A stretch of 64,000 bases of DNA from Herbidospora sakaeratensis (GTDB taxonomy: Bacteria; Actinomycetota; Actinomycetes; Streptosporangiales; Streptosporangiaceae): NCBI RefSeq assembly GCF_001570525.1, contig NZ_BBXC01000008.1, positions 248,001 to 312,000 of the forward strand. Reading direction: 5' to 3'. Of this stretch, positions 2,204 through 50,248 are shown piece after piece. The notes under the pieces are model-generated. The model had not been told where the DNA came from. It was given only the letters and a program-made list of their open reading frames with translations, and did no database searches. How positions within the stretch are numbered: the first letter of the stretch is position 1; each line of letters starts with the position of its first letter. The translations under genes were made by a program, and so were the position numbers.

Positions 2204-3550
2204 TCAGACCTCCATGGTGACACGCCGGGACAGCAGCGCCCCCGCCAGCGCCATCACCACGAGCAGACCGAAGCAGACGGCATAGGCCCCGGTCGAGGTG
2301 AGGATCGCGCCCGTGACGGCCACCGCGACCACGGTCACGCCCGACTCGCCGACGCTCAGCGAGGCGCTGTTCTTGCCCTCCTCGCCCGGCCTGGACAACT
2401 CCAGGACCAGCACCGACAGCGTCGGGTAGATCATCCCGATGCCGAGCCCGCAGACCACCCAGCCCAGGAACGCCACCCAGATCGGCACGGCGGGCAGGAA
2501 CGCCAGCGCGGTCACCGAGATCCCGGCCACGACCAGCAGGTGGCCGCCCCAGAGCCGGAGCACCCGCCCGCCGGGGTACCTGCCCTGCAACCACGACCCG
2601 GCCGACCAGGCCAGCGCGCCGCCGGTGAGGACGATGCCCGCCTGGGTCAGCGTCAGGCCGCGCTCCCGCACCAGCATCAGCGGCACGAGGACCTCGGCGG
2701 CGAAGAACGCGCCCATGCTCAGGCCGCGCAGCGCGACCACGGTCGGCAGGCCGCGGGAAGCCTTCATGGTCCCGCCCGGGACCAGCATCGGCAGGGCGAC
2801 CAGCAGCACGGCCAGGCCGACCGCCATCAACACGTAATTGGACTCACCGGAGCCGTACTGCAGCACCGCCGCGCCCACGGCCGCGCCGCCTCCCCAGGCG
2901 AGCCGCGCGGCGAACGGGCCGGTGTCGGCCCGTTCCTCCTGCTCCGTGTACGGCTCCCGGGAGGCCAGGCCGCGCCAGAAGATCGCCGCCGCCGGGAGCG
3001 CGATCACCGCGACGCCGAGGAAGACGGCCCGCCAGGTCCACGTCTCGGTGACCGTGCCGGTGATGGCCGGGCCGACCACCGACGGCAGCACCCAGGCGGC
3101 GGCCAGCAGCGAGAAGACCTTGGGGTGCATCGCGCCCGGGTAGACCCGCGCGACCAGGACGTAGATGGCCACGTTGAACAACCCGCCGCCCAGCCCCTGG
3201 AGCAGCCGCCCGGCGATGAAGACCTCCATCGTGGGGGCCAGCCCGGCGATGACCAGGCCGGTCACGAACAGGCCGAGGCCGGTCCAGAGGGGCTTGTCGG
3301 GGCCGGAGAGGTCACCCCAGCGGCCGCCGGCGACGGTGCCGACGAGGGTCGCGGCGACGGCGCCGCTGAAGGCCAGGCTGTAGAGGCCGAACCCCTGCAG
3401 TTCCTTGCCGATCTCGGGCATGGCTGTGGCGACCGCGAGGTATTCGAACGCGACCAGGACCATGAGCGCGGTGATACCGGTGCTCAGAGCGCGGTAGCGG
3501 GTCGAGAAGACCGCCGGCGGCGGTGAGGTTGATGTCATCAGGGAAGCCAT
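2204..3550 (-). CDS. MFS transporter
   Basis: This 448-aa integral membrane protein has about twelve or more hydrophobic segments. It carries the MFS loop between helices 2 and 3 (GGRWGDLSGPDKP) and opens with ALMVLVAFEYLAVATAMPEIGKEL, which is typical of drug/metabolite MFS exporters. The ATG at 3550 (MASLMTS) is preferred over an upstream in-frame start that would add a non-membrane basic extension; a second ATG four codons in is also possible. No clear ribosome-binding site precedes either. It is the first gene of a likely two-gene unit with the MenC-like protein, suggesting they act on the same small molecule. The substrate is unknown. Confidence 0.85.
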   Translation of the reverse strand: MASLMTSTSPPPAVFSTRYRALSTGITALMVLVAFEYLAVATAMPEIGKELQGFGLYSLAFSGAVAATLVGTVAGGRWGDLSGPDKPLWTGLGLFVTGLVIAGLAPTMEVFIAGRLLQGLGGGLFNVAIYVLVARVYPGAMHPKVFSLLAAAWVLPSVVGPAITGTVTETWTWRAVFLGVAVIALPAAAIFWRGLASREPYTEQEERADTGPFAARLAWGGGAAVGAAVLQYGSGESNYVLMAVGLAVLLVALPMLVPGGTMKASRGLPTVVALRGLSMGAFFAAEVLVPLMLVRERGLTLTQAGIVLTGGALAWSAGSWLQGRYPGGRVLRLWGGHLLVVAGISVTALAFLPAVPIWVAFLGWVVCGLGIGMIYPTLSVLVLELSRPGEEGKNSASLSVGESGVTVVAVAVTGAILTSTGAYAVCFGLLVVMALAGALLSRRVTMEV

Positions 3551-3656
3551 GTTTCGGACATTACGGAAGGAGAGCGTAGCGGGCATCGGGCCCTGGCCCG
3601 AGGAGGCGTGGGACCTTGGTCCGACGTCCTCGGGGCCGGTCTTCGTCGTCACGGGG

Positions 3657-3739
3657 CGGGGCGGGAGCGGGTGGTCGCCGCCGGATGCGGCGGGCGCCGG
3701 GGGCGGCGGTCGGGGCCGGGGTGGGCGGAGCCGTAACGG
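3657..3739 (-). repeat. dispersed 3'-flank repeat, copy A
   Basis: On the minus strand, one base after the VWA gene stop, lies CCGTTACGGCTCCGCCCAC (complement of 3721-3739), followed by a GC-rich tail ending in an ATCCGGCGGC stretch. The same core follows three other genes in this window at 13961, 16823 and 60896. Copy A shares its tail most closely with the copy at 16823. It sits between the end of the five-gene module and the MFS promoter region. Confidence 0.7.
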
Positions 3740-3740
3740 A

Positions 3741-4928
3741 TCAGCTGGTCTGTTTGCCTTCGCCCAGGTTGCGTTCGGCCCAGGCGGTGATGTCGCGGCG
3801 TTCGATCGCGGCGGCCATGAGGTCGGGGAAGGCGTCGGGGGTGCAGGCGAAGGCCGGCACGCCCATCGCCGCGAGGGCGGCCGCGTTCTCGTGGTCGTAG
3901 AAGGGCGCGCCCTCGTCGGACAGGGCCAGCAGGACGATCACCTGGACGCCGGCCGCCGTCATCGCCGCCACGCGTTTGAGCATCTCGGCCCTGACCCCGC
4001 CCTCGTAGAGGTCGCTGATCAGGATGAAGATCGAGTTGGCCGGGCGGGTGATGAGGCCCTGCGAGTAGGCGATGGCGCGGTTGATGTCGGTGCCGCCGCC
4101 GAGCTGGGTGCCGAACAGCAGCTCGACCGGGTCGTGGAGCTGGTCGGTGAGGTCGACGACGGCGGTGTCGAAGACGACCAGCGACGTCTTCAGCGACCGC
4201 ATCGAGGCCAATACCGCCCCGAACACGCTCGAATAGACCACCGAGGCGGCCATCGAACCGCTCTGGTCGATGCACAACACCACCTCGCGCTGCACCGACT
4301 GCTGCTTGCGGGCGTAGCCGACCAGGCGCGACGGCACGACCGTGTTGCGGTCGGGCAGGTAGTTCTTGAGGTTCGCCCGGATGGTCCGGTCCCAGTCGAT
4401 GTCGGCCGGTCGTCGCGGCCGGTTGGTGCGGGCGGCCCGGTTGAGCGCGCCGGTCACCGCCGCGCGGGTGCGGTGCTGGAGCTTCCTCTCGAGCTCGTGG
4501 ACGACCTTGCGGACCACCACCCGGGCCGACTCGCGGGCCTTCTCGGGCATCACCCGGTTCAGCGACAGCAGGGTGCCGACCAGGTGGACGTCGGGCTCCA
4601 CCGCCTCGAGCATCTCGGGCTCCAGCAGCAGGCGGCTCAGGTCGAGGCGGTCGATCGCGTCCTTCTGCATGACCTGGACGACCGTCGACGGGAAGTAGGT
4701 GCGGATGTCGCCCAGCCACCGGGACACCCGGGGCGCGGAACCGCCCAGCCCGGCCGAGCGGGGCGCGCGTTCGCCGTCGCCGTCGAGGTCGTAGAGGGCG
4801 GCCAGGGCGGCGTCCATGCCGGCGTCGTCGCCTGCCAGGCCGCCGAGGCCGCCGCCGGGCGCGTTCTCGGCCTCGCCGCCCAGGACCAGCCGCCAGCGGC
4901 GGGCCCGCTCGTCGTCGTGCACGTCCAT
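3741..4928 (-). CDS. VWA domain protein of the SWIM-DUF5691-MoxR-DUF5682-VWA module
   Basis: This 395-aa soluble protein has a Gly/Asp-rich N-terminal part and a basic helical middle (about 120-210). A C-terminal von Willebrand A domain carries an intact MIDAS: DQSGS at 221-225, then GGGTDIN and an ISD aspartate further on. VWA proteins paired with MoxR ATPases usually act as metal-dependent adaptors. The ATG overlaps the stop of the DUF5682 gene by one base (TGATG), showing translational coupling, and this fixes the start; a longer in-frame ORF upstream is only a shadow of DUF5682. It is last in the operon. The target is unknown. Confidence 0.88.
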   Translation of the reverse strand: MDVHDDERARRWRLVLGGEAENAPGGGLGGLAGDDAGMDAALAALYDLDGDGERAPRSAGLGGSAPRVSRWLGDIRTYFPSTVVQVMQKDAIDRLDLSRLLLEPEMLEAVEPDVHLVGTLLSLNRVMPEKARESARVVVRKVVHELERKLQHRTRAAVTGALNRAARTNRPRRPADIDWDRTIRANLKNYLPDRNTVVPSRLVGYARKQQSVQREVVLCIDQSGSMAASVVYSSVFGAVLASMRSLKTSLVVFDTAVVDLTDQLHDPVELLFGTQLGGGTDINRAIAYSQGLITRPANSIFILISDLYEGGVRAEMLKRVAAMTAAGVQVIVLLALSDEGAPFYDHENAAALAAMGVPAFACTPDAFPDLMAAAIERRDITAWAERNLGEGKQTS

Positions 4929-7156
4929 CAGCCGCTCCCCAGGATGCCCATGACGGTGCGCACGGCCGGGGCGGCGCGCTCGTCGTCGTACACGATGTCC
5001 TTCTCGGTGGCCGCGCCCGAGCGGACGCGGCTCGCGATCGAGCGCCGCTCGGGCGGCGCGAACGAGCCGAAGGTGCGCCGCAGCAGCGGCAGGACCTCCA
5101 CGAACGCGTCGCCGCGCAGGCCCACGAGCCAGTCGTCGACCATGGCCAGCAGGCGGGGGTCGTGCACCAGCAGCAGCCCGCCGCCCGACAGGAACCCCTC
5201 GATCCAGGCCGCCGCCCTCGCGGGCGGATGGGCCAGCGAGACGGCCCGCGACATGCGCGCGTCGGCGTCGCCGAGCCGGTCGCCGTCGAACAGGATCCGG
5301 ACGATCCGGCCCTCGATGATCCCGGGCAGGCCGGTCCGGTCGGCCAGGGCGCGCAGCGCGCCCAGCCAGCGTTCGCGGCCCTCGTCGAGCAGCGCCGACG
5401 CGCCGGTCACGGCGTCGATGTGGACGACCATGCCGCGCGCGTTCTCGTCGTCGAGCCCCGACACGGCGGCCGACAACCCGGCGCAGATCCGGGCCAGCAG
5501 CGACGTGGCGATCACGGCCAGCCCCTCGGCCGGGGTGCCCCGGACGTCGCCGTAACGCTGGGCCCGCACCAGCGCGGGCAGCGCGGCCATGAGGTGGCGG
5601 ATGTCGGTGTCGACGGCGGCCCGGTCGCCGATCGCGGCCAGCACGGCCGGCAGCGACCCCGGCAGGTCGGCGAGCAGCGCCCGCTCGACCAGCCCGGTCA
5701 GGTCGGCCAGCGCCGCGCCCTCGCGGCCGGCCACTTCGGCGATCTTCGCGGTCGCGGCGGCCGGCACGGTCACCCCGAGCGGCGCGGCCTCGATCAGGGA
5801 GATGTCGAACTCGGGCCGCCACTGGAGCGCCCACGCCTCCTTGAAGGTGCCCTTGCCCCGGGTGTGGCGGGGCTCGCCCCACGGGACGTTGAGCAGCCGG
5901 AGCCGGTGCAGCAGGCGGCTGCGGTCGAGGTCGAGCGGCTTGCGCAGGTCGAGTTCGAGTTCCCGGTCGAGCGCCTCGGGCTTGAGCCGGAGCCTCCGCT
6001 GCTCCTCACGCAGATGGCGCTGCAGCGGGACCATCGGCGTCGAGTCGGGCACGTGGCCGAGCCGCTCCCCCACCACCATGCGCCGCTGGATCAGCTCGAC
6101 GGGCAGTTCGTCGCCCTCGCACAACACGGCCCTGGCGGCCTCGGTGACCTCGGCGAGCCCGGCCAGCGGCCGGTCGCGGACGACCGCCAGGCTCTGGGCC
6201 AGCCGGACCGACTCGATGACGTGGGCCGAGGAGACCGGAATCCCCTCATCGCGCAGCACTCCGGCGGCGGCCGCCAGCCATCGCTCGACCGGGCGGTCGG
6301 GGGCGGCGAACAGGTGGGCGTACCAGCCCGGCGAGGTGACGCCCGCGCCGTACCCGCTCCAGTGGGCGAGCCGGCCGTGGGTCCACGGCACCCAGGTCAT
6401 CTCGGCCTTGACCTTCGGCAGGCCCTTGAGGATCCGATCGTCGGCGGCGGCCGGGCCGATCGTGGTCAGCGCCGGGACGTGCCACGCGCCGCACACGACC
6501 GCGATGTTCTCGAAGCCCTCCTTCATCGCGACCCGGACGGTCCGGCGCATGTACGCCTCCCGCCGGGCCTCCCGCTCGTCGGGGGTGTAACCCTCGCGGA
6601 CGGCGGCCATGGCCTCGGCGATGACCTCGAAGGGGGTGTCGCCGCGGTGCTCGACGGCGTCCTCCCACCAGCGCTCGGGGTCGTCGTAACCGGCGGCGGC
6701 GGCCAGCGAGGCGATCGGGTCGACCCGGACGGCCTGGGCCTGGGTGAGATCGGCGGCCGGATCGGGTGCGGCCCGGTCATCCGGAGCCTTGCCCGCCGGG
6801 GCGTCGTCATCCGGAGCGTCGTCGGGGGCGGCGTCCTTCTCCGCGAGCGAGTGGGCTGCCGGAAGGTCGCAGAAACGCGCCGGGATGCCGACCTCCGCCG
6901 CGTAGCGGAGGGCCTGCCATTCCGGGGAGAAGGTCGCGAAGGGCCAGAAGGCCGCCTTGGCCGGGTCGCCCGGCACGTGGGCCAGCAGCGCCACCGGCGG
7001 TTCCATGCCGGGGTCGGCCGCCAGGGCGACCAGGCCGTCGGCCTCGGGCGGGCCCTCGATCAGCACGAGGTCGGGTTTCAGTCGGGCGAGTTCGGCCACC
7101 ACGGCGCGTGCGGAACCAGGGCCGTGGTGGCGGACGCCCAGCAGGGTGATGGTCAT
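4928..7156 (-). CDS. DUF5682 family protein, TraB/TIKI-like N-terminal region
   Basis: This 742-aa cytoplasmic protein has no membrane segment. Its first 60 residues (LLGVRHHGPGSA, then PDLVLIEGPPEADG) and a later GAWHVPAL motif near residue 240 recall the GxxH / E / GxH pattern of the TraB/TIKI/ChaN hydrolase superfamily; that relation is my inference. A low-complexity Asp/Ala/Pro insert lies at about 110-145. The C-terminal half is helical with no recognised motif. It starts 3 bases after the MoxR stop and overlaps the VWA start. Position and coupling place it inside the MoxR/VWA module, perhaps as the effector. Confidence 0.8.
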   Translation of the reverse strand: MTITLLGVRHHGPGSARAVVAELARLKPDLVLIEGPPEADGLVALAADPGMEPPVALLAHVPGDPAKAAFWPFATFSPEWQALRYAAEVGIPARFCDLPAAHSLAEKDAAPDDAPDDDAPAGKAPDDRAAPDPAADLTQAQAVRVDPIASLAAAAGYDDPERWWEDAVEHRGDTPFEVIAEAMAAVREGYTPDEREARREAYMRRTVRVAMKEGFENIAVVCGAWHVPALTTIGPAAADDRILKGLPKVKAEMTWVPWTHGRLAHWSGYGAGVTSPGWYAHLFAAPDRPVERWLAAAAGVLRDEGIPVSSAHVIESVRLAQSLAVVRDRPLAGLAEVTEAARAVLCEGDELPVELIQRRMVVGERLGHVPDSTPMVPLQRHLREEQRRLRLKPEALDRELELDLRKPLDLDRSRLLHRLRLLNVPWGEPRHTRGKGTFKEAWALQWRPEFDISLIEAAPLGVTVPAAATAKIAEVAGREGAALADLTGLVERALLADLPGSLPAVLAAIGDRAAVDTDIRHLMAALPALVRAQRYGDVRGTPAEGLAVIATSLLARICAGLSAAVSGLDDENARGMVVHIDAVTGASALLDEGRERWLGALRALADRTGLPGIIEGRIVRILFDGDRLGDADARMSRAVSLAHPPARAAAWIEGFLSGGGLLLVHDPRLLAMVDDWLVGLRGDAFVEVLPLLRRTFGSFAPPERRSIASRVRSGAATEKDIVYDDERAAPAVRTVMGILGSG

Positions 7157-7159
7157 CGC

Positions 7160-8245
7160 TCAGCCGGCGTCCCGGCAGGCGCGGTAGAAGTCGCGCCACT
7201 CCTCGCGTTCCCGGACGACCGTCTCCAGGTATTCCTGCCAGACCACCCGGTCGGACACCGGGTCCTGCACGACCGCCCCGACGATCCCGGCCGCGACGTC
7301 GGAGGGCCGCAGCACCCCGTCGCCGAAGTGGGCCGCGAGGGCGATCCCGCTGGTCAGGACCGAGATCGCCTCGGCGGTCGACAGGGTGCCGCTGGGCGAC
7401 TTGACCTTGGTGCGGCCGTCGGAGGTCACCCCCGAGCGCAGCTCGCGGAAGACCGTGACGACGCGGCGGATCTCCTCCAGGCCCGCCGGGGTCTCGGGCA
7501 GTTCGAGCGACCGGCCGAGCTGGGCGACCCGGCGGGAGACGATCTCCACCTCCTCCTCGGCCGAGGCCGGGACCGGCAGCACCACCGTGTTGAACCGGCG
7601 GCGCAACGCGCTCGACAACTCGTTGACGCCCCGGTCGCGGTCGTTGGCGGTGGCGATCACGTTGAAGCCCTTGGACGCCTGCACCTCCTCGTTGAGCTCG
7701 GGGATCGGCAGCGTCTTCTCGGACAACACGGTGATCAGCGCGTCCTGCACGTCGGAGGGCATCCGGGTCAGCTCCTCGACCCGGGCCAGCCGCCCTTCGG
7801 ACATGGCCCGCATCACCGGGCTGGGCGTCAGTGCCTCCCGTGAGGGGCCCTCGGCGAGCAGGCGGGCGTAGTTCCAGCCGTAGCGGACGGCCTCTTCCGC
7901 CGTTCCGGCGGTGCCCTGGACCAGCAGGGTCGAGTCGCCGGAGACGGCGGCGGCCAGGTGCTCGGACAACCAGGTCTTGGCGGTCCCGGGCACGCCGAGC
8001 AGCAGCAGCGCCCGGTCGGTGGCCAGGGTGGCGACGGCGACCTCGACGATGCGGCGCGGGCCGATGTACTTGGGCGTGATCACCCCGCCGGGGTGGCTCG
8101 CGTCGCCCAGGATGTACGTGGTCACCGCCCAGGGCGACAACCGCCAGCCGGGCGGGCGGGGCCGGTCGTCGTGCTTGGCCAGGACGGCCAGTTCGTCGGC
8201 GTACTGGTCTTCCGCGTGGGGCCGCAGGACGGTGGGGGTCGTCAC
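7160..8245 (-). CDS. MoxR-type AAA+ ATPase
   Basis: This 361-aa AAA+ protein has Walker A GVPGTAKT (84-91), sensor 1 VIATAND (about 196-202) and an arginine-finger stretch ALRRRFN. The Walker B position reads RLARVEELTR (152-161) where MoxR proteins usually have a hydrophobic strand plus DEINR, so the aspartate is replaced by glutamate and the strand is unusually polar. MoxR ATPases are thought to act as chaperones that remodel or activate partners together with VWA proteins. The GTG start at 8245 has a good AAGGAG and overlaps the DUF5691 stop as GTGA. Confidence 0.9.
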   Translation of the reverse strand: MTTPTVLRPHAEDQYADELAVLAKHDDRPRPPGWRLSPWAVTTYILGDASHPGGVITPKYIGPRRIVEVAVATLATDRALLLLGVPGTAKTWLSEHLAAAVSGDSTLLVQGTAGTAEEAVRYGWNYARLLAEGPSREALTPSPVMRAMSEGRLARVEELTRMPSDVQDALITVLSEKTLPIPELNEEVQASKGFNVIATANDRDRGVNELSSALRRRFNTVVLPVPASAEEEVEIVSRRVAQLGRSLELPETPAGLEEIRRVVTVFRELRSGVTSDGRTKVKSPSGTLSTAEAISVLTSGIALAAHFGDGVLRPSDVAAGIVGAVVQDPVSDRVVWQEYLETVVREREEWRDFYRACRDAG

Positions 8246-9639
8246 GAGAACTCCTTGATCATGTCGGAACGGAAGCGGAGCAGGGCGGCGGCGGTCTGCA
8301 GTTCGCCGGTGTCGGGCAGTTGATCGAGGTCGTAGTCGCCGGCCGGATCGAGCCGCTCGCCCGCCAGGCGGGCCAGTTCGCCCGCGTTCCACGGCTGGCT
8401 GGAGGCGATGTCGGCGACCCGCTGGAGCACGGCCGCCGCGAGCGGCCCGCTCCACGGCCCGGGCACCCCGCCGAGCATCATGATCAGTTGGCCGTCGACG
8501 TTCCCGGCCCGGACGATCTCGGCGGCCCGCCACGACCGCTCGTCGGGCGGCAGGACCGCCAGCAGGTCGGTGAGCGGCTCGACGTCGAACAGGGCGCGGG
8601 CCCAGACGGGGTCGTCCTGCAGGATGGCGGCCCGGATCCAGCCCATGTGGATCTCCCGGGCCCAGTCGCCGATCGTCATGCGGACCAGCTCGGCGGGCTC
8701 GGCCCCGAGGTGGCCGGGCCAGAACCGCAGCGGCGTGTGCGCGATGACCTGCTGCAACCACCAGCTGCGCGGCCCGGTGCCGGCCGGCGGCCGCGACCGC
8801 ACGCCGTCGCGCTCCATGACGGAGTCGCAGGCCGTCGGCGCGACCGCGCTGAGCCGGGAGCCGTCGCGCACCAGCAGCGGCGCGGCCCGCGCGGCCATGC
8901 GCTGGCCGAGCCGGGAGTCGGGCAACTTGGTGAGCAGGTCGGCGGCGGCCTGCCGGACCTCGCGGCGGCGGTCGTCGAGCGCCTGCTCCAGGAACGGCTC
9001 GTCGGCCATGGTCAGCCCGTCGGCCAGGACCGCGACGAAGGCGGCCCGGTCGTCGGGGTTCTCCTTCGGCCAGGTCACTTCGAGCAGTTCTCTGGCCTCG
9101 TCGGCGGAGGCCGCCCGCAGCGCGGCGAGGAACGCCTGGCGGTCGCCGCGGGTGCCGAACTCCCACGGGCCGTGGTCGAGCCCGGCCGGCACGTCGCCGG
9201 AGCTCTCCTGGAGGAGGTAGCCCCACTCGGGGTTCAGCTGGGCCAGCCAGCGCCCCCGGGCGCCCGCCACGACCGCGAGGTCGGCCCGGATCGACCGGTC
9301 GCGCGCCCCGGCCGCCAGCAGCTGCGGCAGCAGCCGGGCCGGGACCCGCGACGACCGGCGGGCCGCCAGGCCCAGCCATTCGGGCAGCACCCGGGAGAAC
9401 TCCCCGGCGAGCAGCCGGGCCAGCCGGTCGGCGGCCTTGGCCGGCACCGGCGGCGCGCCGTCGCCGGGCGCCTCGGGGAGCGGGCTGCCGCCGCCGGGCC
9501 GCTCCCCGGCCCTGCGGGCGACCACCTGGGCGGCGGCCTGTTCGAGCAGGTCGAACGGGGAGTCGAGGCCCCGGCGCTCGGTCCCGACGAGAGCGGTGGA
9601 GACCAGTTCGTTCCACCCGTTGCGCCGATCGAGTCTCAC
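8242..9639 (-). CDS. DUF5691 family protein
   Basis: This 465-aa soluble, helix-rich protein recurs with SWIM, MoxR, DUF5682 and VWA genes. The central stretch (RRREVRQAAADLLTKLPDS) looks like a HEAT-type repeat, and other segments such as ADRLARLLAGEF and GELARLAGERLDP are similarly amphipathic, so a helical scaffold is likely. The GTG start overlaps the stop of the SWIM gene in a GTGA, and its own stop overlaps the MoxR start the same way, so the three are translationally coupled. No enzymatic motif is seen. Confidence 0.82.
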   Translation of the reverse strand: MRLDRRNGWNELVSTALVGTERRGLDSPFDLLEQAAAQVVARRAGERPGGGSPLPEAPGDGAPPVPAKAADRLARLLAGEFSRVLPEWLGLAARRSSRVPARLLPQLLAAGARDRSIRADLAVVAGARGRWLAQLNPEWGYLLQESSGDVPAGLDHGPWEFGTRGDRQAFLAALRAASADEARELLEVTWPKENPDDRAAFVAVLADGLTMADEPFLEQALDDRRREVRQAAADLLTKLPDSRLGQRMAARAAPLLVRDGSRLSAVAPTACDSVMERDGVRSRPPAGTGPRSWWLQQVIAHTPLRFWPGHLGAEPAELVRMTIGDWAREIHMGWIRAAILQDDPVWARALFDVEPLTDLLAVLPPDERSWRAAEIVRAGNVDGQLIMMLGGVPGPWSGPLAAAVLQRVADIASSQPWNAGELARLAGERLDPAGDYDLDQLPDTGELQTAAALLRFRSDMIKEFS

Positions 9640-10943
9640 AGGACCACCACCTCGTCGTTTTCGTCCCACGTCGTGAGAGGACGCAGGCCGTCGGGAGTCC
9701 ATTCCACGGCGGCCGTCACCGGGCGGCCGCCCGAGACGGCGACCAGCTTCCACGGGTCGCCCGCCGAGGGGTGGAGCCGCAGGCCCTGCCCCGAGTCGCC
9801 CACCAGGCACCACTCCTTGCCGTCGCGCCCGACCCGGGCGCCGGTGATCACCAGCGGCCACGATTCGGTCCACGGGTCGCGGGTCAGCACGTCGGCGACC
9901 AGCTGCGGCACGCCCTCGACGGCCACCCCCGAGGCCGGGGCCCTGGCGGGCACCGCCGCGCCGTAGCGGTCGGCGATCAGGGCCCGCAGCGGCGCCGCGC
10001 CCGGGTAGTAGGAGACGTCGGCGTCGACCCGGGTGCCGAGCACCAGCGACGCGTCGAGCGGCTGGCCGGGCGGCGCGAACGACAACACCAGGGCCACCCG
10101 GCCGGTCGCCCGGCCGTGGAGCCAGACCCGCCGCGACAGCAGCCGGTCGCGTTCTTCGTCGCGCAGCGCGATGACCTGCCATTCGTCGCGGATCGGCGGC
10201 AGGGCCAGCACGGTCTCCCTGGCCACCTGGTAGCCGACGCGCTGGCGTACGGTCTCGCGCAGGTCGCCGGGCAGCTCGGCGGCCCTCCGGTGGGCCACGG
10301 CCAGCAGGTGGACCATGGCGTACTCGCCGAGCAGCCGCCCCGGCCAGTTCTCGTCGCGGAAGACCCGCGTGAGGCCGGAGAAGGTGCCGGCCAGCCCGGG
10401 GGCCTGTGCGTCGACGAGCCGTTTGGCCAGGTCGCTCCACTCGGCCAGGCCGGTCTGGCGGGCGTCGGACAACCCGCTCGCGACCTGGTCGGACAACCAG
10501 CGTTCGAGCTCGGCCAGGCCGGCGGTCACGCGTTCTTCGCGCTGCCGGGCGCGGCCCTCGTCGGGCTTGCCGGCGGCGGGCTCGGCCTTCTTCTCCGCCG
10601 CCTTCTCGGCCTTCGCCGCACGCTGGGCGAACCACTCGGCCGCCCAGGGGGCGAGCTCGGCGGCGGGCGGCACCCCGTCGGCCGACCACAGCAGGAGCAG
10701 GCCCAGGGCGTGTTTGCACGGGAACTTGCGGCTGGGGCAACTGCACCGGTAGGCGGGCTCGGACAGGTCGACGCACGCCTGGTAGGGCTTCGACCCGGAC
10801 CCGGCGCACTCGCCCCACAACGCCGAACCGTTCACCCCCATGGCGGACCACTTCCTGGGCGCGCTCACCCCGCCGGCCGCCTTCTGCGAGGCGGCGTCGG
10901 GCGCGAGCGCCAGCACCTGGTCTCGACTCCATCGTTCGGTCAC
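9636..10943 (-). CDS. SWIM zinc-finger protein, first gene of the five-gene module
   Basis: This 435-aa protein has an early SWIM zinc motif CxCx6CxH (C67, C69, C76, H78), a fold that binds DNA or protein. An Ala/Lys/Glu-rich helical stretch follows, and then a long alpha/beta C-terminal part. The GTG at 10943 is preferred because a TAGGGT box lies exactly 7 bases upstream, as in a leaderless transcript. A longer upstream ORF would run antisense into the divergent regulator. It probably heads the operon running to 3741, and the LAL regulator gene diverges from the other side of the 91-base gap. Confidence 0.85.
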   Translation of the reverse strand: MTERWSRDQVLALAPDAASQKAAGGVSAPRKWSAMGVNGSALWGECAGSGSKPYQACVDLSEPAYRCSCPSRKFPCKHALGLLLLWSADGVPPAAELAPWAAEWFAQRAAKAEKAAEKKAEPAAGKPDEGRARQREERVTAGLAELERWLSDQVASGLSDARQTGLAEWSDLAKRLVDAQAPGLAGTFSGLTRVFRDENWPGRLLGEYAMVHLLAVAHRRAAELPGDLRETVRQRVGYQVARETVLALPPIRDEWQVIALRDEERDRLLSRRVWLHGRATGRVALVLSFAPPGQPLDASLVLGTRVDADVSYYPGAAPLRALIADRYGAAVPARAPASGVAVEGVPQLVADVLTRDPWTESWPLVITGARVGRDGKEWCLVGDSGQGLRLHPSAGDPWKLVAVSGGRPVTAAVEWTPDGLRPLTTWDENDEVVVL

Positions 10944-10956
10944 GCGCCGCACCCTA
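10944..10956 (-). promoter_or_regulatory. putative -10 box of a leaderless promoter for the five-gene module
   Basis: TAGGGT (complement of 10951-10956) is followed by 7 bases and then the GTG start of the SWIM gene. This matches TANNNT with transcription starting at or beside the start codon. No clear -35 was recognised. It is one of about a dozen similar arrangements in the window. Confidence 0.5.
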
Positions 10957-11034
10957 GCCGCGCCGGGCGACAAAACGTGCAAGATCACGAAGAGGGCCCG
11001 GGGTTCTGTCGGTGTGACGTGCCATACTCGCAGC

Positions 11035-13896
11035 GTGGTGGGCCGAAAGACACAAACCGGGCTTGTCGGGCGGGGGTTCCAGCTCGACCGGTTGTCCCGG
11101 GTGCTCGACGCCGCGATCGGCCGCATGGCCGGGGTGGCGCTCGTCGGCGGCGACGCCGGAATCGGGAAGACACGCATCGTCTGCGAGCTGAGCACGATCG
11201 CGCGGGAGCGCGGTTTCACCGTCCTGGTCGGGCAGTGCGCCGAGCTGGGCAACGCGCTGCCCTATCTCCCGCTCGCCGACGCGCTGCGCAGCGCCGATCT
11301 CCGGTCGGCGCTCGAATCGCGGCCGGTGCTGCGGAGGTTGCTGCCGGGGGCCGACCCCGACGGGTCCGACGCGCTCAGCGGGGCGCTGGCCCAGCAGCGG
11401 CTCTTCGGGGCGACGCTGAGCCTGCTGGGCGAGCTGGCCGACGAGCGGCCGGTGCTGATGGTCTTCGAAGACCTCCACTGGGCCGACCACTCGACGCGAG
11501 ACCTGCTGGTCTTCCTCACCCGCATGCTCCAGCGCGAGCGGGTGGTCCTGGTCGGCACCTACCGGACCGACGACCTGCACCGCCGCCATCCGCTGCGGCC
11601 GGTGCTCGCCGAGCTGCAGCGGTTGCCGCTGGTCGTGCCGGTCGAGCTGCCGCCGCTCGACGACGAGGCGATGGCGACCCACCTGACCGCCCTCGGCGGC
11701 GGGAACGCGGGCCTGATCGGCGGGGTCGTCGGGCGGGCCGGCGGGAACCCGTTCTTCGCCGAGGAGCTGCTCCAGGCGGCCTCGAGCGGCGACCGGCTGC
11801 CCGCGACGCTGGCCGACCTGCTGATGGCGCGGGTCGAGGGGCTGTCCGACACGGCCCAGCAGGTGCTCCGGGTGGCGGCCGTGGCCGGGCGGCGGGTCGA
11901 CCACGACATGCTGCGCGCGGCGGCGGGGCTGGCCGACCGGCCGCTCGAAGAGGCGCTGCGCGAGATCGTCTCGCGCGGGCTGCTCACCGTCGACCAGCAC
12001 ATCGGCTACGACTTCCGCCACGCCCTCCTCCAGGAGGCCGTCTACGACGACCTGCTGCCGGGCGAGCGCACCCGCCTGCACATGACCTTCGCGGCCCTGC
12101 TGACCGAGTCGGGCGGCCGGGCGGCCGAGCTGGCCCACCACTATTCGGCCGCCCACGACGTGCGGGGCGCGCTGATCACCTCGCTGGAGGCGGGCCTGCG
12201 GGCGACCCAGATGGGCGCCCCGGCCGAGGCCAACCGGCACTTCGACCGGGCGCTGGAGGTGTGGGAGCAGGTCCCCGACGCCGACACGCTCACCGGCACG
12301 ACCCGGGCCCGGCTGATCCTCGACAGCGCCGCGGCGGCGGCCGACAGCGGCGACAACCACCGGGCCATCGCCCACCTGCGGCGGCTGCGCCAGCTCGTCA
12401 CCGAGCCGCAGCTGGTCGCCGAGACCAACGAGCGGCTGGCCTGGTACCAGGCCGACGGCGACGACTTCCACGGCATGGCCGAGGCGGCCCAGGCGGCGGT
12501 CGACGCCGTCGGCGACGGCCCCGAGACCCCGATGCTGGCCCGCGCCCTGGCGACCCACGCCCGCACCTTGTGGATCGCCGAACGGGTGATCGACGCCCAG
12601 GAGGCCGCCGCCCGCGCGCTCGAGGTGGCCCGGCGCACCGGGTCGATCGAGGCCGAGTCGGCGGCGCTGGTGTCGCTGGGCATCCAGCAGGAGTCGCTCG
12701 GCGATCCCGACATGGCCGAGGAACTGCTGTCGATGGCGGCGGCCAAGACGTCGGGGTCGTTGTCGATGGACCTGCGGGCCCGGTTCAGCCTGGCCCGGCT
12801 GCAATACGAACGGGGCGACCTCGACGCGGCGGCCGAGTCGGCCGAGGCCGGGTTGCAGGTGGCCCGCGAGAACGGCCTGATGTGGAGCACGTTCGGCACC
12901 GACCTGCGGTTCCTGCGTTACCTGATCTCGTTCGCGGCCGGCGACTGGGACGCCGCCGAGAAACGGGCCGCGATGTTCGGCGTGCGGGTCGGCACCCCTC
13001 CCGAGGCGCTGCTGTCGTCGTTCGCCCTGTTCGTCGAGGTCGGCCGGGGGCGCGCGGTGGCCGCCGAGCGGCTGCGCTGGCTGGAGCCGTTCTGGGGCGC
13101 CGACGACCTGGTGACCTACATGACCCGCGGCATGGCGGCCGAACTCGCCCTCTGGCAGGGCGACCCGAAGGAGGCGCTCGGCCACGTCGACGCGGTCGTG
13201 AAGGTGCAGCAGCCCTACGACTCGGGCCTGATCCGCGTCTCGGCCATCGGCCTGGCCGCCCTCGCCGACCTGCCGCCGGGCGACCCGGCCCGCGAACGCG
13301 CCGACGAGTTCGTCGAACGGGCGCGTTACGCCGCCACCCACGGCCCCACCGGCCCGTGGAACACACTCGGCCCCGAGGGCCGAGGCTGGGCGGCCCGCGC
13401 CGAGGCCGAATGGCACCGGTTGTCCGGCACCGCCACCCCCGAGGTGTGGGAGCGCGCACTGGCCGCCTTCGACGGCGGCTTCCCCTACGAGCAGGCCCGC
13501 AACCGCTGGCGGCTGGCCGAGACCCTTCTTGAGACGGGCGACCGCGACCGGGCCCGCGCCGAGTGGCAGCAGGCCGTCGAGGTGGCCGACCGCCTGGGCG
13601 CCGCCCCCCTCCGCCACGCCCTCGACCTGCTGGGCCGCCGGGCCCGCTTCACCACGCCCGACTCGGCCGAGCCGGTCCGGGCGAGCGTGCTCGACGCCCT
13701 GACCGGGCGGGAACGCGAGGTCCTGGCCCAGGTGGCGGCGGGCCGCTCCAACCGCGAGATCGGCGAACGCCTCTTCATCAGCCAGAAGACGGCGAGCGTC
13801 CACGTGTCCAACATCCTGGCCAAACTCGGCGCTACCACCCGCACCCAGGCCGCCGCCATCGCCCATCAGGAAGGCGTGAGACCCCCCGCCGACTGA
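11035..13896 (+). CDS. LAL-type LuxR family transcriptional regulator
   Basis: At about 953 aa it has the large-ATP-binding LuxR layout. An N-terminal AAA-like NTPase carries Walker A GDAGIGKT near residue 40 and a Walker B region PVLMVFEDLHWAD. A long helical TPR-like middle follows, and then a C-terminal LuxR HTH (LTGREREVLAQVAAGRSN ... ISQKTASVHVSNILAKL). LAL proteins activate transcription after a ligand-driven switch. The start is GTG 11035 or the adjacent GTG 11038; a CATACT box 6 bases upstream suggests a leaderless mRNA. It diverges from the five-gene module and could control it, but that is only positional inference. Confidence 0.9.
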   Translation: MVGRKTQTGLVGRGFQLDRLSRVLDAAIGRMAGVALVGGDAGIGKTRIVCELSTIARERGFTVLVGQCAELGNALPYLPLADALRSADLRSALESRPVLRRLLPGADPDGSDALSGALAQQRLFGATLSLLGELADERPVLMVFEDLHWADHSTRDLLVFLTRMLQRERVVLVGTYRTDDLHRRHPLRPVLAELQRLPLVVPVELPPLDDEAMATHLTALGGGNAGLIGGVVGRAGGNPFFAEELLQAASSGDRLPATLADLLMARVEGLSDTAQQVLRVAAVAGRRVDHDMLRAAAGLADRPLEEALREIVSRGLLTVDQHIGYDFRHALLQEAVYDDLLPGERTRLHMTFAALLTESGGRAAELAHHYSAAHDVRGALITSLEAGLRATQMGAPAEANRHFDRALEVWEQVPDADTLTGTTRARLILDSAAAAADSGDNHRAIAHLRRLRQLVTEPQLVAETNERLAWYQADGDDFHGMAEAAQAAVDAVGDGPETPMLARALATHARTLWIAERVIDAQEAAARALEVARRTGSIEAESAALVSLGIQQESLGDPDMAEELLSMAAAKTSGSLSMDLRARFSLARLQYERGDLDAAAESAEAGLQVARENGLMWSTFGTDLRFLRYLISFAAGDWDAAEKRAAMFGVRVGTPPEALLSSFALFVEVGRGRAVAAERLRWLEPFWGADDLVTYMTRGMAAELALWQGDPKEALGHVDAVVKVQQPYDSGLIRVSAIGLAALADLPPGDPARERADEFVERARYAATHGPTGPWNTLGPEGRGWAARAEAEWHRLSGTATPEVWERALAAFDGGFPYEQARNRWRLAETLLETGDRDRARAEWQQAVEVADRLGAAPLRHALDLLGRRARFTTPDSAEPVRASVLDALTGREREVLAQVAAGRSNREIGERLFISQKTASVHVSNILAKLGATTRTQAAAIAHQEGVRPPAD

Positions 13897-48046: not shown

Positions 48047-48283
48047 AGTGCCTTTACCTGCCCTTATCCGTCCACTCGACCTCAAGAAACCCTACAGAAA
48101 CGCCCGTCTCGGATTGATCGGGTCTCCCCTTTTGCCCGAGGTAGATCGTCTTTGACCCAGCGCCCCGTGTGGCCAGTGTGCCATGGGAACTCCCCTTCGC
48201 ACCCCCGAACTCCGGGATGTGGTCCGGCGGTCACGGTCCGATAACAGCACGCTGTTGTCGGTGGCGGGCGCTAGCCTTTCGGG

Positions 48284-50248
48284 GTGCCGAAATCCGACCT
48301 GCCAACTGTAGAAGAGCTGCTCACGATCGCCGTCAGGGAGCTCGGCGGCGCCGAGAGACCGGGGCAGGTCACGATGGCCACGGCGGTCCAGAAGGCGCTC
48401 GACAAGCGCGACCATCTCGCAGTTCAGGCGGGCACCGGCACCGGCAAGTCGCTGGCCTATCTGGTGCCCGCGATCCGCCACGCGGCGATCTCCGACAGCG
48501 CCGTCGTGGTGTCCACGGCGACCATCGCGCTGCAGCGCCAGCTCGTCGACCGCGATCTTCCCCGGCTCGCCGACGCCCTCGAAAAAGAACTCCCGCATCG
48601 ACCGGAATTCGCCATTCTTAAGGGCCGTCGCAACTATCTGTGCCGATACAAGTCAACTGTCGGCATGCCCGAAGACGAAGCCGATCAGCTTTTCGACCCC
48701 CGCGAAGTGAGCGCCACGGGCCGCATGGTCCAGCGCATCCAGGAATGGGCCGAGGAGACCGAGACCGGCGACCGCGACGAGCTGGTGCCTGGGGTGAGCG
48801 AGATCGCCTGGCGCCAGTTCTCGGTGTCGGCGCGCGAGTGCCTGGGCGCCCAGCGCTGCCCCAGCGGCGGCGAGTGCTTCGCCGAACTGGCCCGCGAACG
48901 GGCCGGCCTGTCCGACGTGGTGGTGACCAACCACGCCCTGCTCGCCATCGACGCGATGGAGGACTTCCAGGTCCTCCCCGAACACGACGTCGTGGTCGTC
49001 GACGAGGCCCACGAGCTGGTCGACCGCGTGACGTCGGTGGTCACCGACGAGTTGTCCGAGTCGACGGCCGGGCTGGCCGCCCGCCGCGCCGGCCGCCTCA
49101 TCGAGCAGGGCCTCGCCGACCGGCTCCAGGAGGCGGCCGAAGACCTCGGCTCCCTCCTCACCGCCGCGCCCGCCGGCCGCGTCGACGAGCTGCCGCAGTC
49201 GCTCGGGCTGACCCTGGCGCTGCTGCGCGACGCCGCCTTCGCCTGCATCACCGCCCTGGGCTCCCGCAACGCCGACAAGGACGACCCCGAGGGCGCCGGC
49301 GCGAAGAAGGCGGCGTTCACCGCGCTCGACGAGGTCCACGACACCGCGCAGCGCATGCTCGACGCGTTCGGCGCCGAGTCGGAGGTCGACCGGGCCGAGG
49401 TGGTGTGGCTGGAGGAGGGTTCCGGCCGGGTCCCGCCGACCCTGCGGGTCGCGCCGCTGTCGGTGGGCGGCATGCTCCGCGACAAGCTGTTCGGCGACCG
49501 GACCGTCGTGCTGACCTCGGCCACCCTCGCGCTCGGCGGCACCTTCGACGGCATGGCGGCCCAGTGGGGCCTGGGCAAGAACGACGACTGGAGCGGCCTC
49601 GACGTCGGCTCCCCGTTCGACCACGCCCGCGCCGGCATCCTCTACGTCGCCAAGCACCTCCCCCAGCCGGGCCGCGACGGCCTGCCCGACGCCTACATCC
49701 AGGAGATGGTCGAGCTCGTCGAGGCCGCCGGCGGCCGCACCCTCGGCCTGTTCTCCTCGATGCGCGCCGCCAAGGCGGCGACCGAGGCGCTGCGCGACCG
49801 GCTGTCGGTGCCGTTGTTGTGCCAGGGCGACGACTCCACCTCGCTCCTGATCAAGCAGTTCGCCGCCGACCCCGAGACCTGCCTGTTCGGCACCCTGTCG
49901 TTGTGGCAGGGCGTCGACGTGCCCGGCCCGTCGCTGACCTGCGTCATCATCGACCGCATCCCGTTCCCCCGCCCCGACGACCCGCTGACCTCCTCGCGGC
50001 AGCGCCACGTGGCGGCCAAGGGCGGCAACGGCTTCATGTCGGTCGCGGCCACCCACGCCGCACTGCTGCTGGCCCAGGGCGCCGGCCGACTGCTGCGCTC
50101 GATGGACGACCGGGGCGTCATCGCCGTCCTCGACCCCCGCCTGGCGACCGCGCGCTACAGCGGCTTCCTGCTGAACTCGCTGCCGCCCTACTGGCGCACG
50201 ACCGACCCGGCGGTGGTCCGGGCCGCGCTGAAGCGGCTCACGTCCTGA
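48284..50248 (+). CDS. XPD/DinG-type ATP-dependent DNA helicase
   Basis: This 654-aa superfamily 2 helicase has Walker A AGTGTGKS (49-56) and motif II VVVVDEAH. An iron-sulfur domain is marked by four cysteines (C120, C186, C192, C198) between them, and late motifs include LWQGVDVPG and QGAGRLLRS. It unwinds DNA 5'-3', with roles in repair or R-loop/replication-fork clearance. The GTG at 48284 has TAGCCT 6 bases upstream (leaderless). Its last 11 bases overlap the convergent MOSC gene. Confidence 0.92.
   Translation: MPKSDLPTVEELLTIAVRELGGAERPGQVTMATAVQKALDKRDHLAVQAGTGTGKSLAYLVPAIRHAAISDSAVVVSTATIALQRQLVDRDLPRLADALEKELPHRPEFAILKGRRNYLCRYKSTVGMPEDEADQLFDPREVSATGRMVQRIQEWAEETETGDRDELVPGVSEIAWRQFSVSARECLGAQRCPSGGECFAELARERAGLSDVVVTNHALLAIDAMEDFQVLPEHDVVVVDEAHELVDRVTSVVTDELSESTAGLAARRAGRLIEQGLADRLQEAAEDLGSLLTAAPAGRVDELPQSLGLTLALLRDAAFACITALGSRNADKDDPEGAGAKKAAFTALDEVHDTAQRMLDAFGAESEVDRAEVVWLEEGSGRVPPTLRVAPLSVGGMLRDKLFGDRTVVLTSATLALGGTFDGMAAQWGLGKNDDWSGLDVGSPFDHARAGILYVAKHLPQPGRDGLPDAYIQEMVELVEAAGGRTLGLFSSMRAAKAATEALRDRLSVPLLCQGDDSTSLLIKQFAADPETCLFGTLSLWQGVDVPGPSLTCVIIDRIPFPRPDDPLTSSRQRHVAAKGGNGFMSVAATHAALLLAQGAGRLLRSMDDRGVIAVLDPRLATARYSGFLLNSLPPYWRTTDPAVVRAALKRLTS

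What the first reader, a model, noticed from the sequence alone, without database searches (positions are those of the whole stretch)
3741..10943. Five-gene SWIM - DUF5691 - MoxR - DUF5682 - VWA module, fully coupled and uncharacterised
Five genes with no housekeeping role overlap or nearly touch (GTGA, GTGA, 3-base gap, TGATG), so they are made in fixed order as one machine. Known family facts: MoxR ATPases act with VWA proteins to remodel partners. Here they come with a zinc-finger protein, a HEAT-like scaffold and DUF5682, whose motifs recall TraB/TIKI-type hydrolases. The composition suggests an ATP-driven switch that senses something via SWIM/DUF5691 and releases a DUF5682 activity, as in conflict or stress systems. 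Function is inference.
Basis: partly seen in the sequence, partly recalled or inferred. Interest (0 to 1): 0.78.

Follow-up and report, generated by a model that had tools for sequence, protein, structure and literature searches.

The report
DNA-damage-controlled five-gene AAA+ operon (ddrTUVWX)
Five neighbouring genes in a soil actinobacterium match a little-studied radiation-induced operon of Deinococcus and sit behind a DNA-damage switch of a different type, which suggests a widespread bacterial machine, of unknown task, for coping with damaged DNA.

Summary
The five genes are real, on the minus strand at 3741-10943: SWIM, DUF5691, MoxR-type ATPase, DUF5682, VWA, coupled as described. The host is Herbidospora-like. 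The set is not orphan: it is the five-gene operon named ddrTUVWX in Deinococcus, published as radiation-induced and IrrE/DdrO-controlled, function unknown. MoxR, DUF5682 and VWA are also homologous to E. coli YehL, YehM and YehP. New here: before the first gene lies the published PafBC-type DNA-damage promoter, tTGTCRgtg-N8-TAnnnT (the window copy lacks gtg). The window has two matches (0.02 expected); the other precedes a DinG-like helicase. In 35 fresh relatives 32 carry it upstream of the SWIM gene, against 1 of 2476 control windows. Three other architectures built on the MoxR-DUF5682-VWA core carry it in 9 of 11 evaluable loci. How it works is inferred: SWIM and a HEAT-like solenoid target it, MoxR/VWA drive it, and DUF5682, with invariant His/Glu/Arg, may be a metal-dependent hydrolase. 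Its proposed TraB/TIKI kinship stayed inconclusive.

The parts
10951..10973 (-). PafBC-type (RecA-independent) DNA-damage promoter element, TTGTCG-CCC-N8-TAGGGT, 7 bases upstream of the SWIM start codon; the gtg triplet of the consensus is replaced by CCC
   Evidence: 2 matches in 64 kb, 0.02 expected; consensus from PMC5656591; present at the same distance in 5 of 5 congeners whose SWIM gene could be read, of 6 fetched
9636..10943 (-). SWIM zinc-finger protein, 435 aa; counterpart of DdrT
   Evidence: Pfam SWIM E 6e-6; 35% identity over 442 aa to the D. taeanensis SWIM protein
8242..9639 (-). DUF5691 protein, 465 aa, HEAT-like helical solenoid; counterpart of DdrU
   Evidence: Pfam DUF5691 E 1.7e-137, HEAT_2 0.008 below cut-off; model and Foldseek; only a 69-aa stretch, E 5e-4, aligns to the D. 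taeanensis protein
7160..8245 (-). MoxR-type AAA+ ATPase of the YehL kind, 361 aa; counterpart of DdrV
   Evidence: AAA_5 E 6e-38; 42% to YehL; 70% to D. taeanensis; Walker A pattern in 76 of 76 loci
4928..7156 (-). DUF5682 protein, 742 aa: alpha/beta N-terminal part with invariant His/Glu/Arg plus a helical remainder; counterpart of DdrW
   Evidence: Pfam DUF5682 E 1.5e-275; 26% to YehM; 43% to D. taeanensis; invariant residues; model pLDDT 84
3741..4928 (-). VWA (CoxE-type) protein with intact MIDAS motif, 395 aa; counterpart of DdrX
   Evidence: VWA_CoxE E 7e-54; 37% to YehP; 53% to D. taeanensis; DQSGS motif in 73 of 75 loci

Best explanation
This is the actinobacterial counterpart of the Deinococcus radiation-response operon ddrTUVWX, expressed from a PafBC-type DNA-damage promoter. 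Identity of the operon is shown by sequence and synteny; control by DNA damage is strongly indicated by promoter sequence but not measured here. Proposed working, inferred: after damage the SWIM protein and its HEAT-like partner bind damaged DNA or a protein on it, and recruit a MoxR-type AAA+ ring with its VWA adaptor; the ring uses ATP to remodel the target or to activate DUF5682, which then acts as a metal-dependent hydrolase. The targeting part is exchangeable (SWIM+DUF5691, DUF4132+SWIM, others); MoxR-DUF5682-VWA is the constant core. The confidence given covers identity plus damage control; I put the working model at about 0.3.
For: Identity: D. taeanensis plasmid NZ_CP083457 carries SWIM, DUF5691, AAA ATPase, a 78-aa protein, DUF5682, VWA, and PMC9510100 states that this strain has ddrTUVWX with a 78-residue protein between ddrV and ddrW (passage seen). 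D. deserti ddrTUVWX has an RDRM motif and is radiation-induced, IrrE-dependent (PMC5552922, passages and section 17 seen). Promoter: 2 matches in the window, 0.02 expected; 33 of 67 loci strict and 47 of 67 with a relaxed form, against 4 and 10 of 12,272 control windows; replication in 37 readable loci of 40 further regions, 34 strict and 36 with the relaxed form, against 1 and 2 of 2476 control windows; two of the 37 proved to be sequences already seen, which leaves 32 and 34 of 35. Other architectures: 9 of 11 evaluable loci. The motif marks repair genes in this genome: 17 sites against 1 for the reversed pattern, among them sites in front of UvrB and helicase genes (10 of the 17 downstream frames scanned with Pfam) and of frames that I read by eye as UvrA and an SbcD-like nuclease. 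recA has the relaxed form in 15 of the 17 recA loci examined, own genome included. A PafC-type HTH protein is in 9 of 9 genomes searched.
Against: The window's own copy lacks the gtg triplet, as do its congeners' copies. 20 of 67 loci lack both forms, 3 of them non-actinobacterial, and 6 of 13 anchored loci of the phylum draw lack it, 5 of these outside the streptomycete-like genus. In the divergent arrangement only the SWIM side has the motif; the MoxR side has it in 0 of 26 loci, so the motor half may not be damage-induced there. I found no LexA box near the E. coli yeh genes and no clear RDRM before the D. taeanensis operon, using a consensus from memory. The PafC model also rings in 5 of 14 control genomes (over the cut-off in 3), so it is not a specific proof of PafBC. 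PMC9380542 reports that an initial search did not find the M. smegmatis PafBC motif conserved in S. venezuelae (passage). I saw no expression, binding or phenotype data for the actinobacterial genes, and nothing here tests the biochemical roles.
Confidence: 0.8

Rival explanations
1. A MoxR/VWA metallo-enzyme maturation system, like NorQ/NorD or CoxD/CoxE, that inserts a metal into or activates DUF5682 or another enzyme; the damage promoter only times its production.
For: The VWA is CoxE-type; the closest solved relatives of the ATPase include NorQ (E 4e-10); MoxR proteins act in metal-enzyme maturation (PMC3893208, passages). DUF5682 has invariant His and Glu.
Against: The usual partners SWIM, DUF5691 and DUF4132 have no counterpart in those systems as far as I recall. 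Genes outside the module were not surveyed, so a conserved enzyme target nearby is not excluded.
Confidence: 0.3
2. An anti-phage or conflict system related to the MoxR-vWA ternary systems.
For: Shared MoxR and VWA parts; a bpMoxR hit below the cut-off (E 1e-4); DNA damage can accompany infection.
Against: PADLOC shows only an AAA hit at E 0.003. SWIM, YehL, DUF5682 and TraB do not occur in the main text of the ternary-systems paper (PMC7159879). A DUF5682 gene is in 7 of 7 genomes of the own genus, 117 of 121 of a streptomycete-like genus (any class), and the yeh stretch in 5301 of 5426 E. coli, which is core-like. Variable effectors or defence islands around the loci were not surveyed.
Confidence: 0.08
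3. The motif belongs to a general stress or housekeeping promoter and says nothing of DNA damage.
For: No expression was measured here; the -10 part resembles ordinary actinobacterial promoters (recalled).
Against: Only 17 strict sites in 8.6 Mb, several before repair genes, and the independent damage control of the orthologous operon in Deinococcus.
Confidence: 0.1

Closest known systems
ddrTUVWX of Deinococcus (Deide_18730 to Deide_18690)
   Same: Same five families in the same order in D. taeanensis, linked to the name through PMC9510100; damage response
   Different: Controlled by IrrE/DdrO and an RDRM motif in D. deserti; here a PafBC-type promoter; Streptomyces loci split it into two divergent units; a 78-aa extra gene in D. 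taeanensis
E. coli yehL-yehM-yehP-yehQ (with yehI)
   Same: MoxR, DUF5682 and VWA are homologous (42, 26 and 37% identity); a SWIM gene is present
   Different: DUF4132 gene instead of DUF5691; SWIM protein not alignable by BLASTP and placed last; no LexA box found. The window's genome has such a second copy (L032), with a damage motif that begins 47 bp before the first listed start of its first gene
MoxR-vWA ternary conflict systems (PMC7159879)
   Same: MoxR plus VWA plus a third component
   Different: Third component is not VMAP, iSTAND, FtsH or beta-propeller by Pfam; bpMoxR below cut-off
NorQ/NorD, RavA/ViaA, midasin
   Same: AAA+ with VWA/MIDAS partner (recalled for midasin); midasin and NorQ are the solved chains that the ATPase matches
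   Different: Different subfamily and partners; no known substrate here

Membership tests
ddrTUVWX operon | Five genes SWIM, DUF5691, AAA, DUF5682, VWA in this order | tested here: met
   the DUF5691 pair is joined by Pfam family and place, the direct alignment being weak
ddrTUVWX operon | RDRM motif and DdrO control | tested here: inconclusive
   The window was not scanned for RDRM; the actinobacterial operon has a PafBC-type element. In D. taeanensis a recalled RDRM consensus fits only with 5 mismatches, no better than elsewhere in the locus
ddrTUVWX operon | Induction by radiation | not testable with these tools
   Published for D. deserti: the first gene more than tenfold, three others more than fivefold, the fifth not in the table; no expression data for this host
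PafBC regulon | tTGTCRgtg-N8-TAnnnT in front of the gene | tested here: met
   the window copy lacks gtg
PafBC regulon | PafC regulator in the genome | tested here: met
   PF19187 E 7e-39 in G000, 9 of 9 genomes over the cut-off; the model also rings in 5 of 14 controls. PafB and linkage to pafA not checked
PafBC regulon | PafBC-dependent induction by DNA damage | not testable with these tools
   Needs RNA-seq or reporter
YehL subfamily of MoxR ATPases | Homology to YehL with VWA partner gene adjacent | tested here: met
   42% over 356 aa, E 2e-83; VWA homologous to YehP; no subfamily tree built
TraB/TIKI/EreA-like hydrolases | Recognisable fold or profile similarity | tested here: inconclusive
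   Foldseek on the full model: no hit at E<=1e-3, helical hits dominate; hhalign to Erythro_esteras 0.8% probability, aligned at the R[ED]xxM...H motif; no PDB sequence relative; TraB itself not compared
MoxR-vWA ternary conflict systems | bpMoxR over cut-off or one of the four published third components | tested here: not met
   21.5 bits against cut-off 27; no such component among the five genes by Pfam
Anti-phage defence system | Match to known defence models | tested here: not met
   PADLOC 2023: nothing but one AAA hit at E 0.003

The most novel reading that the evidence does not exclude
All MoxR-DUF5682-VWA systems, E. coli yehLMPQ included, are one ancient DNA-damage-response machine. 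Its AAA+ core clears or processes protein-blocked DNA through a DUF5682 metallo-hydrolase, different targeting subunits are bolted on, and different lineages have wired it to whichever damage regulator they own (PafBC, DdrO).
Probability: 0.2. Interest if true: 0.9.

Novelty: new variant of a known kind. Interest (0 to 1): 0.72.

Why it matters
A conserved AAA+ operon, present in nearly all genomes drawn from a streptomycete-like genus and with no assigned task, gets a testable physiological role. Two unrelated damage regulators, DdrO in Deinococcus and apparently PafBC in actinobacteria, control the same five genes, which is strong evidence that the product serves damaged DNA. It also bears on an open question stated in print, whether streptomycetes have a PafBC-type response (PMC9380542, passage): the motif stands before recA and this operon there. 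And it ties the E. coli K-12 yeh genes to a damage-linked family that can be studied in laboratory strains.

Tried and rejected
Conflict system: dropped for core-like distribution and lack of phage or PADLOC links. Molybdate regulation through MolR/DUF4132: the passages seen offer only old, indirect links. LexA control: two half-type boxes in 66 anchored loci, no box near the E. coli yeh genes; one near-match to a recalled cyanobacterial box before L092 is too little to use. GTTC-N7-GTTC boxes (recalled alphaproteobacterial LexA) were not found in L205, L206, L208. TraB/TIKI fold: inconclusive. One TraB-family locus turned up in 60 genomes, and L171 gave no readable translation, so TraB was not compared. 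Solved-structure sequence searches with DUF5682 gave nothing specific, and with SWIM-DUF5691 little but designed helical repeats and one HEAT-repeat protein. The two E. coli yehQ papers opened (passages) give no DNA-damage link there.

On what is in print: the searches were 8, 9, 12, 13, 49, 50, 58, 59, 86 and 104, of an open-access library only. In one search (34 papers held a term, 31 listed) DUF5682 and DUF5691 occur in none of those listed. In one search (462 papers held a term, 30 listed) ddrTUVWX occurs in two of those listed, PMC5552922 and PMC9510100. No search combined PafBC with MoxR and Streptomyces (cap reached), so I cannot say that the link is absent from print.

Dropped rows: 8 of 74 SWIM loci could not be anchored, and 4 of 17, 3 of 40 regions had no SWIM gene found and were left out, and 67 of the 80 loci L061-L140 were usable. 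Of the 37 counted, L214 and L245 are the same sequences as L061 and L101; the control windows were not recounted without them. The 34 streptomycete-like regions were picked from the top of the list, not at random. For recA I took L141-L157 and left out fragments, extra copies and weak hits (L158-L170). In the class B-D count, E. coli (L001) was not counted and L050 and L060 were left out because the stretch lacks the operon start.
Full report
OBSERVATION. The set is not chance: 64 of 66 related loci with enough flank, of 80 fetched, hold all five families, among them the cyanobacteria L092 and L129 and the gammaproteobacterium L095 (class of L095 recalled). The 80 are the best of 515 confirmed relatives, so they lean to close kin. 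Plasmid copies in Deinococcus, Rhizobium and Hymenobacter also hold the set (in Hymenobacter sp. HDW8 the SWIM match lies inside the DUF5691 gene). The annotated Methylosinus copy shows four of the five, no VWA being listed in an incomplete gene table.

IDENTITY. The E. coli K-12 genes yehL, yehM and yehP are homologous to the MoxR, DUF5682 and VWA genes (42, 26 and 37% identity); yehQ is a SWIM gene not alignable by BLASTP to the window SWIM protein. In Deinococcus taeanensis a plasmid bears SWIM, DUF5691, AAA ATPase, a 78-aa protein, DUF5682 and VWA (identities 35%, a weak 69-aa stretch, 70, 43 and 53%). PMC9510100 (passage seen) says that this very strain has ddrTUVWX with a 78-residue protein between ddrV and ddrW. 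PMC5552922 (passages and section 17 seen) reports for D. deserti that this five-gene operon, first gene a SWIM protein and last a CoxE-like VWA protein, has an RDRM motif and is induced by radiation in an IrrE-dependent way: the first gene more than tenfold, three others more than fivefold, the fifth not in the table of strongest genes. Its function is given as unknown. I did not see the D. deserti sequence itself. The window operon is therefore the actinobacterial counterpart of ddrTUVWX.

ARCHITECTURES. Class A, 17 loci, is the window type. Class B, 4 loci, is the yeh type with a DUF4132/YehI gene and a YehQ-like SWIM gene; one is a second copy in the window's own genome (L032). Class C, 6 loci, has DUF5682 fused to VWA and a DUF4132 gene in front. 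Class D, 4 loci, has VWA-MoxR-DUF5682 behind two genes without a Pfam match (read in L057-L059; L060 is put here by score only). SWIM and DUF5691 hits fall on one open frame in L041 and L048 and in L082, L102, L103 and L124; the L102 frame lacks the zinc motif. Such fusions suggest physical contact.

DNA-DAMAGE PROMOTER. I noticed the element from a recalled consensus and then found the published one, tTGTCRgtg-8 nt-TannnT (PMC5656591, passage); the pattern was the same before and after. In the window, TTGTCR-N11-TANNNT matches twice, with 0.02 expected from shuffles: at 10951-10973, 7 bases before the SWIM start codon, and at 48255-48277, before a frame that I call DinG-like (48284-50248). 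In L061-L140, 33 of 67 usable loci have it within 200 bp upstream of a conserved codon near the SWIM start, 47 of 67 with a relaxed form, against 4 and 10 of 12,272 control windows. In 40 further regions 37 had a readable SWIM gene: 34 strict, 36 with the relaxed form, against 1 and 2 of 2476 control windows. Two of the 37 are sequences already seen; without them it is 32 and 34 of 35. Five of the 37 are of the host's genus, 5 of 5 strict. The other 32 are of one streptomycete-like genus (29 strict, 31 with the relaxed form), so the counts are not independent by descent; the L061-L140 hits, however, spread over several genera (Streptosporangium, Sphaerisporangium, Microbispora, Nonomuraea, Nocardiopsis, Catellatospora, Streptomyces and others). 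Some loci scored as missing show near-forms by eye, for example a CATGCT -10 in Kribbella and Amycolatopsis; they were not counted. The other architectures carry the relaxed motif in front of their first gene in 9 of 11 evaluable loci: 2 of 2 class B, 5 of 6 class C, 2 of 3 class D. Eleven such sites exist in the 13 stretches (498 kb counting both strands).

THE MOTIF IS A DAMAGE MOTIF IN THIS HOST. The stricter form TTGTCRGNG-N8-TANNNT has 17 sites in the 8.6-Mb genome against 1 for the reversed pattern. I scanned 10 of the 17 downstream frames with Pfam: UvrB, two DEAD-box-type helicases (one DinG-like by eye), a tyrosine recombinase, a WYL regulator, a second SWIM protein, one DUF6493-like protein, and three without a match. 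Among the rest I read UvrA and an SbcD-like nuclease by eye, and also an ABC transporter and a transposase-like protein; a few sites have no convincing gene behind them. recA has the relaxed form in 15 of 17 loci examined, the host's own included. A PafC-type protein is present in 9 of 9 genomes, though the model also rings in 5 of 14 control genomes.

RESULTS AGAINST. The window's copy has CCC in place of gtg. 20 of 67 loci lack both forms, and 6 of 13 anchored loci in the phylum draw do. In 26 divergent loci the MoxR side never has the motif: there only the SWIM-DUF5691 pair is directly under it. That could mean that the targeting pair is the inducible, limiting part; this is inference. E. 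coli shows no LexA box, and I saw no clear RDRM before the D. taeanensis copy (recalled consensus). PMC9380542 found no conserved PafBC motif in S. venezuelae by an initial search; my result disagrees for other streptomycetes.

MECHANISM (inferred). The ATPase has Walker A in 76 of 76 loci and a conserved LRRRF element in 75 of 76; the Walker B-like pattern I wrote fits only 50 of 76 and not YehL. The VWA protein has a MIDAS DQSGS in 73 of 75, and the SWIM motif pattern is in 68 of 74. DUF5682 keeps His10, His11, Glu34, Glu79, Asp97, Arg199, Glu200, Met203, Gly223 and His226 invariant across all classes (15 sequences down to 19% identity), which looks like an active site. Its model (pLDDT 84) has an alpha/beta N-terminal part with several of these residues just after strands and a long helical remainder. 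The SWIM-DUF5691 fusion of L103 folds with pLDDT 91.5; its best Foldseek hits are mostly HEAT/ARM solenoids, none at E<=1e-3. I propose a damage-induced AAA+ remodeller with exchangeable targeting subunits and a hydrolase. The TraB/TIKI idea remains a lead: RExxM and GxxH motifs recur (recalled for those families), but no profile or fold search confirmed it.

DISTRIBUTION. DUF5682 is in 7 of 7 genomes of the own genus, the host included, 117 of 121 genomes of a streptomycete-like genus, whatever the class, but 19 of 246 across the phylum: core in some lineages, absent in most. In E. coli 5301 of 5426 genomes match and 5162 hold at least 80% of the yehL-Q stretch. On plasmids 36 of 72,556 records match, 27 of them called non-mobilizable and 4 conjugative; some of these records are chromosome-sized. 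This speaks against a mobile defence system.

VERDICT. A real, conserved operon already named in Deinococcus, here shown to stand behind a different DNA-damage promoter in actinobacteria and to belong to a wider family of MoxR-DUF5682-VWA systems that carry the same element. Task at the molecular level unknown.

Noticed in passing
window 48255-48277 (+) and 48284-50248 (+): A PafBC-type site matching the published consensus directly before a DEAD-box helicase gene (DinG-like by eye), a likely second damage-regulon member in the same window.
   Followed up: partly
L032 (G000:C7:894000-913000), 3478-13399: The same genome has a second, yeh-type operon (DUF4132/YehI-like, MoxR, DUF5682, VWA, YehQ-like SWIM) with a damage motif that begins 47 bp before the first listed start of its first gene.
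   Followed up: yes
L255 1010 and 4855 (+); also L256, L257, L258: Other proteins of unknown function behind strict damage sites: a SWIM protein next to a long protein without Pfam match, and DUF6493-like proteins, possibly a separate SWIM-based damage system.
   Followed up: partly
L133 (Acaryochloris) and L112 (Nostocaceae): DUF5682 stands without its partners in these cyanobacterial contigs; in L133 about 9 kb upstream was readable, L112 lies near a contig end.
   Followed up: no
window 10840-13896 (+): The neighbour divergent from the operon is a large AAA_16/TPR/LuxR-type regulator; its listed first start overlaps the SWIM gene and the true start is probably further in.
   Followed up: no
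MT835988.1 (L207): The only phage-collection record with a DUF5682 relative is an unverified 14-kb faecal scaffold without annotation, perhaps bacterial DNA.
   Followed up: no
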